Below the pieces are notes generated by a model, which was given only the letters and a program-made list of their open reading frames with translations, searched no databases and had not been told where the DNA came from. From a virus, in the IMG/VR virus record IMGVR_UViG_3300033148_004419, positions 1 to 42,556 of that record: DNA of 42,556 nt. One strand, given 5' to 3'. Each line of letters begins with the position of its first letter. Position 1 is the first letter of the stretch. This document shows positions 6,864 to 33,626 of the stretch, one piece after another. Made by a program: the position numbers and the translations under genes.

Positions 6864-9425
6864 TTATGCCTGGGTTATAGTCATGTCATCACAAAACACG
6901 GATTCGCCTGTTCCTGCGGCGTAGTACGCATGTGCCTCAATCTGCAAAGATCCCGCCTCGGTGGGCGTGAAGGTCAATTCTAGTTCCTGATAGTCCGTGT
7001 TATCAGCAAGAGTATCTGTCACAACACTAGCCACGCCAGCAATCTGCTCCTTCGGACAAACAAGCATTCCGACAATATCAGTCGCATGGCTCTTCTTCAT
7101 CCAACATTTGACACTCACCTCGTTATTCGCCGTAACGGCTATCTTAGCGATCACCAAGCGGATAGGATTCCTGGAACTTCTGCCTGCGTCATCTACTGTC
7201 ATCTTCCAACAAATACCTGATGCCGTGTGTCTATCAGCTCCATCATCACTTTCAATCGTTCCCCCATCTGTCCATATATAATAATCCCCTGATACTCCCT
7301 GATAATTGTGTGAATATGTATACCAATCACTCCATTTATTTGTTGTTCCAACCCATTTTGTTGCATCAGAAAAAGTACAATTGAAAAAATAAGTATCTGA
7401 ATAATCCGTCTCAATCGAAATACCACTATCATGATTTGATATTGTCATATTATAAAATTCATTATCGCTGCATGCAACCATTTCAATTCCTTGTTGTTCG
7501 CCTTTTGTTATTACATCAATAAAAAATTTATTTTTTCTTGATGATGACATATACATACTCTCTGCGCCATTGTTTGATATTAAACTTAGAGATTCAAACT
7601 TATTGTCATCACATGTGCCTGAAAGATCCAGACCTCTACCTACATTATTACTTATACTAGAAATAGACGTAAATATATTATTGCGACAGTTTGATGACAT
7701 TTCCATACCATCGTTTCCACTGTTATTTATATTCTGTAGAGATGTAAATGTATTAGCATTTGACCCTGACATATTCAAATTAACACTTGTATTATTACAC
7801 ACATTACTTATTATAAATGTGTTATATTCTGAATTTGCAAGCCTGAGACCGTTTTCATATTTATAAAAATTAAGATAATTTATTATATTATAATCTTTAC
7901 TACTCAAATAAAGTCCTGTCCCATTTCCATTCTGACCATCGAAAAATGTCTCGCCATCTTGGGTATTGTTAGAATTGTTATAACCTCCTTGATATTCAAT
8001 ATCATTTCCTGATGTCCCACTGTCTTGGATTTCCTGTACTGCATTTGAAGTAGAAGTCATTAACGTTTGTATCGGATTGCGAAAATATGTCGTAACAGTT
8101 TCCGTTGTTCCTGAATATCCTGTTCCGAATGATACAGGATCATCCGTTGGTTCATTGTCAGTATCATTATCCATCCAAATTACTTTGCCGTCTTCACTGA
8201 TACTTTGGATGCCATAAAATCCGTCTGTGCCTCCTTGCTGTGAACTATTCTTAGAGACAAGACTTTGCATGCATAGACCTGAAGTTGTACATGCAACAAA
8301 ATTGTCCAAATAAATACCCGTTGTAGCTGCGGCTGATGATCCTGAATATAATGCTATTGATTCGATGGACGCACCTAAATTAACATTGTCTCCTACTATA
8401 GTAAGACACACCCATTCGCCAGTAGACGGAATAGCTGGAATGGCTATTGTATCAACAGGTGTCGCCCCTGCTATGTCTGAACACAAACATATCTCCCAAT
8501 CATTTGCCTCAATTGCTGTAAGATTGTGAAGCCAGAAACCAACTTTTTGATAACCTGAGAAATCAACACCTACGCCGCCACCTATCTGAAAATGACCATA
8601 AAGGGTGTCATTTGCTGGACCCGCTTTTACAATTTTTGCTGAAGCATCACCTGATTTATAGTCTGTTGTATTTTTGGTTACAGTCGCTCCATTATCCGCT
8701 GACCAAGTTTCCTCGCATCGCGTTATTGTTTTGGTCGTTGCCGATGCAAGTTTGACTGTTTTGTGATTTACGTTAACGGCTGACCCACCAGAACCAACAG
8801 CAATTCCCGTTGAACCATCAAGAGTATAGTTGTTTGCATCCGTTCGCGTAACAATCCAGGCTCCATTTGCAGTAGAATTTGTGGAATGATCTTTAATATA
8901 AACAACATTGCCTGTAATAAATCCATGTCCAGCATCACCAATGCTAATTGGAGATGCATTTGTTGAAGATGATATACCCTGAGTGCTTGGCATAGTTGTC
9001 GGACAGTCTGTCCAGGTTCCGTTACCTATTGAAACTGAATCGGTTGACTTCGCTATACGGATGATATCCCCAGGAACAATCCTTACTGCAGTAGGACCTG
9101 CCGTTATCGTTTTCCAAGCACAGTATGTGAAGTCACCTCCGATATCAAAGTCTGCACCTACCGCTGCTGAAACAGTCTCAGACTGAAACGCTGCACTCTT
9201 CCCGTAGAAATACATGTCGCCTGACGCATCATTGGTTCCCCATGCTCCCCCCGTCGTATCGACATATGTGACGTATGCAGTACTGACGCTTGTATCACCA
9301 GTAACCAACTCGTCAGCGATAGGCTCTGTCCCAGTTCCATTTGTGAATGCCACTGACCACCAACCGAGAGGGGTCGCGGTAGTAGCATCATCCCCTAGCT
9401 CATAATCCATATAATATATTGCCAT
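6864..9425 (-). CDS. Large tail spike with right-handed beta-helix
   Basis: 853 residues with a good ribosome-binding site (AAGGAGTTGGCTAG). The N-terminal part is beta-rich. About residues 480-700 consist of NosD-like repeats (N-x-F, N-x-S, GL-x-L ladders such as NKFESLSLISNNG), typical of a parallel beta-helix spike. The C-terminal 160 residues look like a carbohydrate-binding beta-sandwich (VSVKCWMKKS, then LQIEAHAYYAAGTGESVFCDD). Such spikes bind or cut surface polysaccharide; I see no catalytic residues I can name. The helix-coding block (about 7280-7990) is much richer in AT than its neighbours. Confidence 0.75.
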   Translation of the reverse strand: MAIYYMDYELGDDATTATPLGWWSVAFTNGTGTEPIADELVTGDTSVSTAYVTYVDTTGGAWGTNDASGDMYFYGKSAAFQSETVSAAVGADFDIGGDFTYCAWKTITAGPTAVRIVPGDIIRIAKSTDSVSIGNGTWTDCPTTMPSTQGISSSTNASPISIGDAGHGFITGNVVYIKDHSTNSTANGAWIVTRTDANNYTLDGSTGIAVGSGGSAVNVNHKTVKLASATTKTITRCEETWSADNGATVTKNTTDYKSGDASAKIVKAGPANDTLYGHFQIGGGVGVDFSGYQKVGFWLHNLTAIEANDWEICLCSDIAGATPVDTIAIPAIPSTGEWVCLTIVGDNVNLGASIESIALYSGSSAAATTGIYLDNFVACTTSGLCMQSLVSKNSSQQGGTDGFYGIQSISEDGKVIWMDNDTDNEPTDDPVSFGTGYSGTTETVTTYFRNPIQTLMTSTSNAVQEIQDSGTSGNDIEYQGGYNNSNNTQDGETFFDGQNGNGTGLYLSSKDYNIINYLNFYKYENGLRLANSEYNTFIISNVCNNTSVNLNMSGSNANTFTSLQNINNSGNDGMEMSSNCRNNIFTSISSISNNVGRGLDLSGTCDDNKFESLSLISNNGAESMYMSSSRKNKFFIDVITKGEQQGIEMVACSDNEFYNMTISNHDSGISIETDYSDTYFFNCTFSDATKWVGTTNKWSDWYTYSHNYQGVSGDYYIWTDGGTIESDDGADRHTASGICWKMTVDDAGRSSRNPIRLVIAKIAVTANNEVSVKCWMKKSHATDIVGMLVCPKEQIAGVASVVTDTLADNTDYQELELTFTPTEAGSLQIEAHAYYAAGTGESVFCDDMTITQA

Positions 9426-28475: not shown

Positions 28476-28577
28476 AGGAGAATGCTGCTTTAAGCCAGAC
28501 TCGGCCATCCTCACCAAATAAGGTCAGGAGTGGGATTCGAACCCACGGTGACACATAAAGTGCCACTACATTCCCCT
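28476..28577 (-). ncRNA. Circularly permuted or scrambled class II tRNA-like sequence
   Basis: On the minus strand the parts of a Leu/Ser-type tRNA occur in the wrong order. First come an anticodon-stem 3' strand (AGGGGAATGT), a long variable arm (GTGGCAC-TTTAT-GTGTCAC), a canonical T arm (GTGGG-TTCGAAT-CCCAC) and a 3' acceptor strand (TCCTGACC). After a six-base spacer (TTATTT) come the 5' acceptor strand (GGTGAGGA), a D arm (TGGCCGAGTCTGGCTTAAAGC in part) and an anticodon-stem 5' strand (GCATTCTCCT). The acceptor strands pair with one G-G mismatch, and the anticodon-stem strands pair for ten bases. No CCA is encoded. If the ends were joined near the stem, a UAG (Leu) anticodon is possible. 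A decayed tandem tRNA pair is the main alternative. Confidence 0.55.
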
Positions 28578-32559: not shown

Positions 32560-32934
32560 TTAAGACCCTGTGCCGTGCTTTGGTTCATCTTTGACAAAAG
32601 ATACACCTGGCCCCTTGTTCGTCGAATATGAGCCATCTGACAGCGTATGGCGCGTCCTTGCAACCAGAGTATCTTCGTCAACGACGTAGAAGTTCTGGGT
32701 CTTTGCGATGTCGTAGTCCTGAATCTCTTCTCTAATGAACCGAATGAACTTCGGGTCTACGTCTTCGAACTCAAGCGCCTGGGCTTCCACAATAAACTCG
32801 TCACCATCCTCATCAAAAAGCAGAAGGTGTCCCTCTTTTTTAATAGAATTCCAGGTATCAATATCAGCATAAACATTCCTCTCAAAACGCATAGCATCAA
32901 AATCATCATCACCTGGTATATAAATAATCTTCAT
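32560..32934 (-). CDS. Acidic protein, 124 aa, next to the RNA ligase
   Basis: Strongly acidic with beta/alpha alternation (MKIIYIPGDDDFDAMRFERN, then LLLFDEDGDEFIVEAQALEF). Not recognised. Coupled by ATGA to the RNA ligase gene, so it could be a partner or regulator of that enzyme; this is only a positional guess. Confidence 0.65.
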   Translation of the reverse strand: MKIIYIPGDDDFDAMRFERNVYADIDTWNSIKKEGHLLLFDEDGDEFIVEAQALEFEDVDPKFIRFIREEIQDYDIAKTQNFYVVDEDTLVARTRHTLSDGSYSTNKGPGVSFVKDEPKHGTGS

Positions 32935-33626
32935 CTGAAATCCTTCACCTTCAATTTGAATTTAAGGGGAGTGCCGTTTCGAAAGCGTAATAGCGGTTCT
33001 GTTTTTGCGACAACACCTTCCATCACGTGTTCTTCTTCAGCAAAGAGCGACAATGGCTTGCTTTTGACAAAATCAACAATTTCGTCTGTTGTGAATGAGA
33101 ATATGGAATCACTATATCCATTAAAAACTAACGGCGCACAAGGGATTCCAAGATCATCAGCCATATCTTCAATAACTTTATGTTCCATCCACCATACCTT
33201 ATCAATATAGACATCAAAAAGACAGAAACGCTGCTCTTTTGAATAATATCCGCCACACTGAATCTTGGCACCATATCCCTCGCCAAACAACAAAACTTCC
33301 TCAGCGTCCTTAAAGACACTTTCCATCAATTCCAAGGTAAAGTGAGCCTGAAGATAAGATAATAGCTTAGGAGGGAGCATAGCGTTGTCTGTGCGACCTG
33401 CAAACGAGACCTGCGCTCCCTTTATATAATGAATGCGAATGTTCATGCCGTCGATCTTCTCTGTAATAATCCAGTTCTTGATGTTTGCGAACTCTGCACA
33501 AGCATAGTCACCTTCAATGAATTTCTGCCTGTTCTTTTGCATTGCTTGGGATGTGTTCTTTTTAAGATTTTCATCGTAATACCACCCCTCACGCTTCCAT
33601 AATGAATTCATCTTCGGATATTTCAT
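32931..33626 (-). CDS. RNA ligase (Rnl2-like nucleotidyltransferase)
   Basis: 231 residues with the ordered ligase motifs: I, EKIDG with catalytic Lys57; III, LLFGEGYG near 112-119; IIIa, FCLFDVYI near 134-141; IV, EGVVAK near 203-208; V, LKFKLKVKD near 221-229. These enzymes adenylate themselves and seal RNA nicks or join RNA ends. It lacks an obvious extra C-terminal domain and no polynucleotide kinase partner is visible. It could repair cleaved tRNA during infection; an intriguing but unproven link is the permuted tRNA-like sequence 4.4 kb away. Confidence 0.85.
   Translation of the reverse strand: MKYPKMNSLWKREGWYYDENLKKNTSQAMQKNRQKFIEGDYACAEFANIKNWIITEKIDGMNIRIHYIKGAQVSFAGRTDNAMLPPKLLSYLQAHFTLELMESVFKDAEEVLLFGEGYGAKIQCGGYYSKEQRFCLFDVYIDKVWWMEHKVIEDMADDLGIPCAPLVFNGYSDSIFSFTTDEIVDFVKSKPLSLFAEEEHVMEGVVAKTEPLLRFRNGTPLKFKLKVKDFR

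What the first reader, a model, noticed from the sequence alone, without database searches (positions are those of the whole stretch)
28476..28577. A tRNA whose 3' half precedes its 5' half (circularly permuted tRNA-like gene)
On the minus strand, the variable arm, canonical T arm (TTCGAAT loop) and 3' acceptor strand come first. After only six bases the 5' acceptor strand, D arm and 5' anticodon-stem strand follow. Acceptor strands pair in 7 of 8 positions, and the anticodon-stem strands pair for ten bases. The RNA would fold as a tRNA with its acceptor end closed by a TTATTT loop and its anticodon end open. Permuted tRNA genes are known in red algae and some archaea; I know of no established phage case. 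The G-G acceptor mismatch, missing CCA and uncertain anticodon (UAG possible) leave decay of a tandem tRNA pair as the main alternative.
Basis: partly seen in the sequence, partly recalled or inferred. Interest (0 to 1): 0.88.

Follow-up and report, generated by a model that had tools for sequence, protein, structure and literature searches.

The report
Phage permuted tRNA-like RNA (Y-RNA-like)
The phage carries a small folded RNA that copies a tRNA with its two halves in swapped order; the swap is real and not a decayed tRNA pair, but the same shape is already known from bacterial and phage "Y RNAs", so this is most likely an unusual tRNA mimic and not a new way of making working tRNAs.

Summary
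On the minus strand, 28577-28476, a variable arm, T arm and 3' acceptor strand precede a 5' acceptor strand and D arm, and a 10-bp helix closes the unit. The minimum-energy fold is that permuted cloverleaf (z about -5). The same inner segments of 300 real tandem phage tRNA pairs give z near 0, none at or below -3.5, so decay of a tandem pair is unlikely. In 11 of 18 contigs they lie near a Ro60/TROVE gene, and five of seven bacterial Ro loci carry one too. This is the topology of YrlA-type Y RNAs, known tRNA mimics. The window unit fails two Y-RNA tests: no Ro gene in 42.6 kb, and no significant flanking stem with the GTTAY motif. It also fits a working permuted tRNA poorly: no bulge-helix-bulge, a G3-G70 mismatch, C73, a weak D stem, no CCA. 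The phage does encode an RNA ligase, which keeps a ligated tRNA possible. Best reading: a Ro-independent variant of the YrlA-like permuted tRNA mimic. Function is inferred, not shown.

The parts
28568..28577 (-). 5' strand of the closing helix, AGGGGAATGT (anticodon-stem 3' strand extended outwards)
   Evidence: pairs with 28476-28485, 10 pairs, in the minimum-energy fold
28548..28566 (-). long (class II, Leu/Ser-like) variable arm, 7-bp stem GTGGCAC/GTGTCAC
28530..28546 (-). T arm with canonical TTCGAAT loop, 5-bp stem
28523..28529 (-). 3' acceptor strand TCCTGAC, directly after the T stem
28515..28522 (-). linker CTTATTTG that closes the acceptor end; no CCA; position 73 would be C
28508..28514 (-). 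5' acceptor strand GTGAGGA, 6 of 7 pairs with 28523-28529 (G3-G70 mismatch)
28486..28507 (-). T8, G9 and Leu/Ser-type D arm (GCCGAGTCTGGCTTAAAGC); D stem imperfect
28476..28485 (-). 3' strand of the closing helix, GCATTCTCCT (anticodon-stem 5' strand extended outwards)
32931..33626 (-). RNA ligase gene (231 aa) on the same strand; possible partner if the RNA is ever ligated
   Evidence: PF09414 E 1.8e-20, phrog_548 E 9.9e-24; motifs KIDG, EGVVAK and KFKLKVKDF read from the translation

Best explanation
The locus encodes a small, stably folded non-coding RNA of about 100 nt that mimics a class II (Leu/Ser-type) tRNA by circular permutation. The acceptor end is closed by an 8-nt loop, and the transcript enters and leaves through an extended anticodon-stem helix. 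[quoted passage not shown] Shown here: the anatomy, its non-random folding, and that the topology is shared with Ro-linked phage and bacterial RNAs. Inferred: that it is transcribed with the minus-strand genes and acts as a tRNA mimic (bait or substrate for tRNA-binding or tRNA-modifying enzymes, nucleases or PNPase) and not as a decoding tRNA. It lacks the Ro gene and the flanking Ro-type stem of typical members, so it is a variant, not a proven Y RNA.
For: The permuted cloverleaf is the minimum-energy fold, z -3.5 for the core and about -5.2 for the whole unit, unlike tandem tRNA pairs; joint acceptor plus closing-helix pairing occurs in 0 of 936 tandem pairs. The same topology recurs in many phage contigs, with strong covariation in T arm and acceptor hairpin: 98.9% of cells paired against 61.5% in shuffles, 93 double changes against 28. 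Of 18 contigs with such units, 11 hold a TROVE/Ro gene, as do mycobacteriophages prophiGD43A-5 and Sparky; that Ro protein matches Deinococcus Rsr 2NVO at E 8.8e-104. Five of seven bacterial Ro loci show such a unit just upstream of the Ro gene. PMC8394870 describes YrlA as a 90-150 nt RNA with a tRNA-like domain of D, T and acceptor arms. A Ro-linked unit with a Leu/Ser-type D arm exists (L018:6322-6480). Against decoding: G3-G70, C73, imperfect D stem, no CCA.
Against: No Ro/TROVE gene in the 42.6-kb contig. Flanks do not form the two-helix stem of Ro-linked units (58 of 200 shuffles as good) and the GTTAY motif is absent. No homologue of this RNA was found in the phage collection, so covariation at this very locus cannot be tested. 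Expression is unknown. The core covariance model does not separate it from tandem tRNAs.
Confidence: 0.6

Rival explanations
1. A functional circularly permuted tRNA-Leu(UAG) gene. The transcript folds, its ends at the anticodon are trimmed and sealed by the phage RNA ligase to a circle, and RNase P plus 3' processing and CCA addition open the acceptor end to give a decoding tRNA.
For: Re-joined halves give a 7-nt loop CTTAGGG with anticodon UAG and a perfect CATTC/GAATG stem; ARAGORN accepts it. The phage encodes an RNA ligase that its fetched relatives lack, one sub-threshold match apart. Other Ro-less contigs carry cleaner permuted tRNAs (L116 and L248 Asn, L043 Arg, L228 UUA, L048 Ser) and four of those contigs hold an RNA ligase (L043, L116, L228, L248); L148, L048 and L043 encode CCA in the linker.
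Against: G3-G70 mismatch, C73 where leucyl-tRNA synthetase needs A73 (general knowledge), imperfect D stem, no CCA, and a continuous 10-bp helix with no bulge-helix-bulge. ARAGORN also accepts 16% of cross-joined tandem pairs. RNA ligases are common in large phages for RNA repair (PMC7824862).
Confidence: 0.12
2. A true YrlA Y RNA that works with a Ro protein supplied by the host or by an unassembled part of the phage genome.
For: Shared topology with Ro-linked RNAs; GGCTGGTCGAAGGTA shortly upstream (about 28617-28603) recalls the vertebrate Y RNA lower-stem sequence, from memory only.
Against: No TROVE gene in the window or in relatives L121, L125, L126, L148; no complementary partner for the upstream sequence and no significant flanking stem; no GTTAY next to the 3' half.
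Confidence: 0.14
3. Remnant of a tandem pair of class II tRNAs: the first lost its 5' half, the second its 3' half.
For: Relative L125 carries a 14-tRNA array just upstream of the corresponding place, and tandem Ser-Ser pairs with similar local sequence are common in phages. L148 keeps a CCA between the halves.
Against: Adjacent halves of real tandem pairs show no such fold: 0 of 300 with z at or below -3.5; both pairings together in 0 of 936. Neither missing half is detectable in the flanks.
Confidence: 0.12

Closest known systems
YrlA-type Y RNAs of bacteria and phages (tRNA-like domain, Rsr/Ro60 partner; PMC8394870 and references there)
   Same: Order T arm, 3' acceptor, closed loop, 5' acceptor, D arm; RNA enters through the anticodon-stem side; encoded in phages, often beside a Ro gene.
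   Different: No Ro gene in the contig, no two-helix basal stem with GTTAY, long Leu/Ser-type variable arm, closing helix continuous with the anticodon stem.
Circularly permuted tRNA genes of unicellular algae and Thermofilum (PMC3978253, PMC3218864)
   Same: 3' half precedes 5' half; re-joining gives a tRNA cloverleaf with an anticodon.
   Different: Bulge-helix-bulge absent; acceptor mismatch and C73; encoded by a bacteriophage; no sign of a circular intermediate.
Tandem phage tRNA-Ser/Leu arrays (e.g. L080, L097)
   Same: Local sequence across the junction is about 71-73% identical.
   Different: Outer halves missing; inner segment strongly folded into one closed unit.

Membership tests
YrlA-type Y RNA | Permuted tRNA-like domain with T, acceptor (closed) and D arms | tested here: met
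YrlA-type Y RNA | Ro60/Rsr (TROVE) gene nearby | tested here: not met
   none in the 42.6-kb contig; 11 of 18 other contigs have one
YrlA-type Y RNA | Basal stem formed by 5' and 3' flanks, with conserved GTTAY next to the 3' half | tested here: not met
   flank duplex no better than shuffles (58 of 200); only the 10-bp closing helix is present
YrlA-type Y RNA | Binds Rsr and PNPase; modified by TruB/DusA | not testable with these tools
   needs biochemistry
Circularly permuted tRNA gene (algal/archaeal) | 3' half before 5' half, cloverleaf restored on joining | tested here: met
   (Leu UAG), with G3-G70 and a weak D stem
Circularly permuted tRNA gene (algal/archaeal) | Bulge-helix-bulge at the junction | tested here: not met
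   closing helix is 10 bp without bulges; requirement from PMC3978253
Circularly permuted tRNA gene (algal/archaeal) | Circular intermediate and mature charged tRNA | not testable with these tools
   no RNA data
Permuted group I intron-exon (PIE) in a tRNA | Group I intron core in the flanks | tested here: not met
   no group I match, even at E up to 10 on the short stretch
Decayed tandem tRNA pair | Inner segment folds no better than in other tandem pairs | tested here: not met

The most novel reading that the evidence does not exclude
Ro-less phages (this one, and contigs L116, L248, L043, L228, L048, L148) carry genuine circularly permuted tRNA genes that are matured into working tRNAs by a phage RNA ligase without the bulge-helix-bulge splicing machinery; the window would be a worn or variant Leu(UAG) case.
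Probability: 0.13. Interest if true: 0.85.

Novelty: new variant of a known kind. Interest (0 to 1): 0.5.

Why it matters
It links an odd phage sequence to a known class of tRNA mimics and shows that permuted tRNA-like genes are widespread in phage contigs but missed by ARAGORN and Rfam 15. If the Ro-less subset is functional, these would be the first permuted tRNA genes of bacteriophages and would make a ligase-based maturation route without bulge-helix-bulge testable. If it is a mimic, it is a candidate decoy against host anticodon nucleases, an idea raised for YrlA in PMC7790460.

Tried and rejected
Group I PIE intron: no Rfam match and flanks too short. Permuted tmRNA: none found; the D arm is a Leu/Ser tRNA arm. 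Normal-order tRNA starting at about 28613 (GGTCGAAGG): ARAGORN accepts it only at a lowered threshold with a four-letter anticodon, and cmscan gives 21 bits to tRNA-Sec, below the cut-off. GOLLD/ROOL-type large RNA: no Rfam match. Core covariance model R1: does not separate permuted units from tandem tRNAs. ARAGORN on re-joined halves: too lenient. Ligase homologue search: one distant relative, L308, without a clear permuted unit. The RNA itself in the phage collection: no match. Host assignment: no prophage relative in genome contigs.

Full report
OBSERVATION. The window is a whole IMG/VR contig of 42,556 bases from a podovirus-like phage with a P22-type portal and a large terminase. ARAGORN finds no tRNA and Rfam no family at its cut-off. 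Its pieces read AGGGGAATGT, variable arm GTGGCAC-TTTAT-GTGTCAC, T arm GTGGG-TTCGAAT-CCCAC, 3' acceptor TCCTGAC, linker CTTATTTG, 5' acceptor GTGAGGA, T8, a Leu/Ser-type D arm, and GCATTCTCCT. The geometry is that of a tRNA: the 3' acceptor abuts the T stem and position 8 is T.

NOT CHANCE, NOT A TANDEM PAIR. I collected 936 true tandem tRNA pairs from phage contigs and asked how well the 3' half of the first pairs with the 5' half of the second. Acceptor pairing as good as in the window occurs in 7, an anticodon-region helix of 9 or more in 17, both in none. The inner segments of 300 tandem pairs fold with mean z -0.18 (sd 0.87), none at or below -3.5; the 98-nt window core has z -3.5 with 0 of 200 shuffles as good, and the 102-nt unit with its 10-bp closing helix z about -5.2. 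In the minimum-energy structure the unit is a permuted cloverleaf. Some tests do not help: the re-joined RNA passes ARAGORN as Leu(UAG), but so do 16% of cross-joined tandem pairs, and a covariance model of the core alone also scores tandem pairs.

THE CLASS. Pattern scans of IMG/VR and a search for T arms without a normal 5' half but with a 5' acceptor shortly downstream gave many units of the same order, often with 7 of 7 pairs and a 3-8 nt loop such as TTCG, GAAA or TCCG. Several lie in tandem (L018, L043, L187, L208, L219, L273). Across 22 units the T arm and acceptor hairpin form 98.9% of pairs, with 93 double-sided changes against 28 in shuffles. In many, joining the halves restores a perfect anticodon stem, often split near position 28/29, with T33 and a purine at 37 (T33 and the purine were required by that search). 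Upstream of the 3' half lies GTTAY in most, and the flanks pair.

IDENTITY OF THE CLASS. The L187 array matches mycobacteriophages prophiGD43A-5 and Sparky immediately upstream of a gene annotated as Ro-like RNA-binding protein; that protein matches Deinococcus Rsr and RO60. TROVE is present in 11 of 18 contigs with permuted units; by coordinates it lies within about 2 kb of them in each. L023 adds another. In bacterial genomes found with the phage Ro protein, five of seven loci, all Poribacteria MAGs (L311-L315), have such a unit 200-350 nt upstream of Ro. PMC8394870 describes YrlA as an RNA with a stem of its 5' and 3' ends that binds Rsr and a tRNA-like domain of D, T and acceptor arms that is a substrate for TruB and DusA and binds PNPase. 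PMC7824862 notes TROVE proteins, with a tRNA-like partner in cells, in some jumbo phages. I conclude that the class is the YrlA-type Y RNAs. The original YrlA papers are not in the library, so I could not compare with their sequences directly.

DOES THE WINDOW BELONG? Topology yes. But there is no TROVE gene in the window or in relatives L121, L125, L126, L148, the flanks pair no better than shuffles, and GTTAY is missing. It also differs in having a class II variable arm and a closing helix continuous with the anticodon stem. A Ro-linked unit with a similar D arm is L018:6322-6480. So in shape it works like the Y RNA tRNA-like domain, but I do not file it as a Y RNA.

COULD IT BE A WORKING TRNA? 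Permuted tRNA genes are known from unicellular algae and one archaeon and depend on a bulge-helix-bulge (PMC3978253); my literature searches found no phage case. The window has no such motif. The acceptor has a G-G mismatch, position 73 is C, the D stem is imperfect and there is no CCA. On the other side, the phage encodes an RNA ligase which the fetched relatives lack, apart from one sub-threshold match, and other Ro-less contigs with clean permuted tRNAs also carry ligases (L043, L116, L228, L248). L148, in the same phage group, has a permuted Lys-like unit with an encoded CCA in the linker. I give this reading about 0.12.

LOCAL CONTEXT. The corresponding place in relatives varies: L125 has a tRNA array and then a set of odd tRNA-like elements in normal order, L126 one tRNA-Thr, L121 an ORF that looks like an HNH endonuclease (by eye only). 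This keeps the tandem-decay reading alive at about 0.12, but the folding data argue against it.

VERDICT. Best reading: a Ro-independent variant of a permuted tRNA mimic. Shown: anatomy, non-random fold, shared class. Inferred: transcription, and function as a mimic.

Noticed in passing
L125:5536-6060 (+): Next to a canonical tRNA array, several tRNA-like elements in normal order with paired acceptor stems but odd T and D loops, arranged as two diverged repeats, each ending in a possible pseudoknot whose second stem differs in a compensatory way (GCAGC/GCTGC against GCTAC/GTAGC). Only copy found in IMG/VR.
   Followed up: partly
window:28718-28635 (-): GCCACGA...GTGTGGC closes a further tRNA-like segment upstream of the permuted unit; its fold is not better than shuffles (z -0.55).
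   Followed up: partly
L228, minus strand, about position 7693 of the reverse complement: Permuted tRNA-like unit whose re-joined anticodon would be UUA (reads the stop codon UAA), with a 22-bp flanking stem, no TROVE gene and an RNA ligase in the contig.
   Followed up: partly
L116:5755 (+); L248 minus strand, position 1425 of the reverse complement: Permuted units that re-join to clean tRNA-Asn(GUU); no TROVE in the contigs, RNA ligase present.
   Followed up: partly
L043:10987 (+), L048 (-), L148:5118 (+): Permuted units with CCA encoded in the linker right after the 3' acceptor strand, as expected of real tRNA 3' ends.
   Followed up: partly
L290:4040-4118 (MW584167.1 26001-26079): Annotated as tRNA-Thr(tgt) in mycobacteriophage prophiGD43A-5, but overlaps a permuted Y-RNA-like unit beside the Ro gene; probably misannotated.
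   Followed up: no
L333:1627 (+): T arm TGGGGTTCGACTCCCCA followed by GGTTTCGACGGGG suggests a permuted tmRNA in a phage contig.
   Followed up: no
window:28517-28269 (-): 82-aa TTG-start ORF overlapping the unit; no homologues found among the loci held or in Pfam, probably not a gene.
   Followed up: partly
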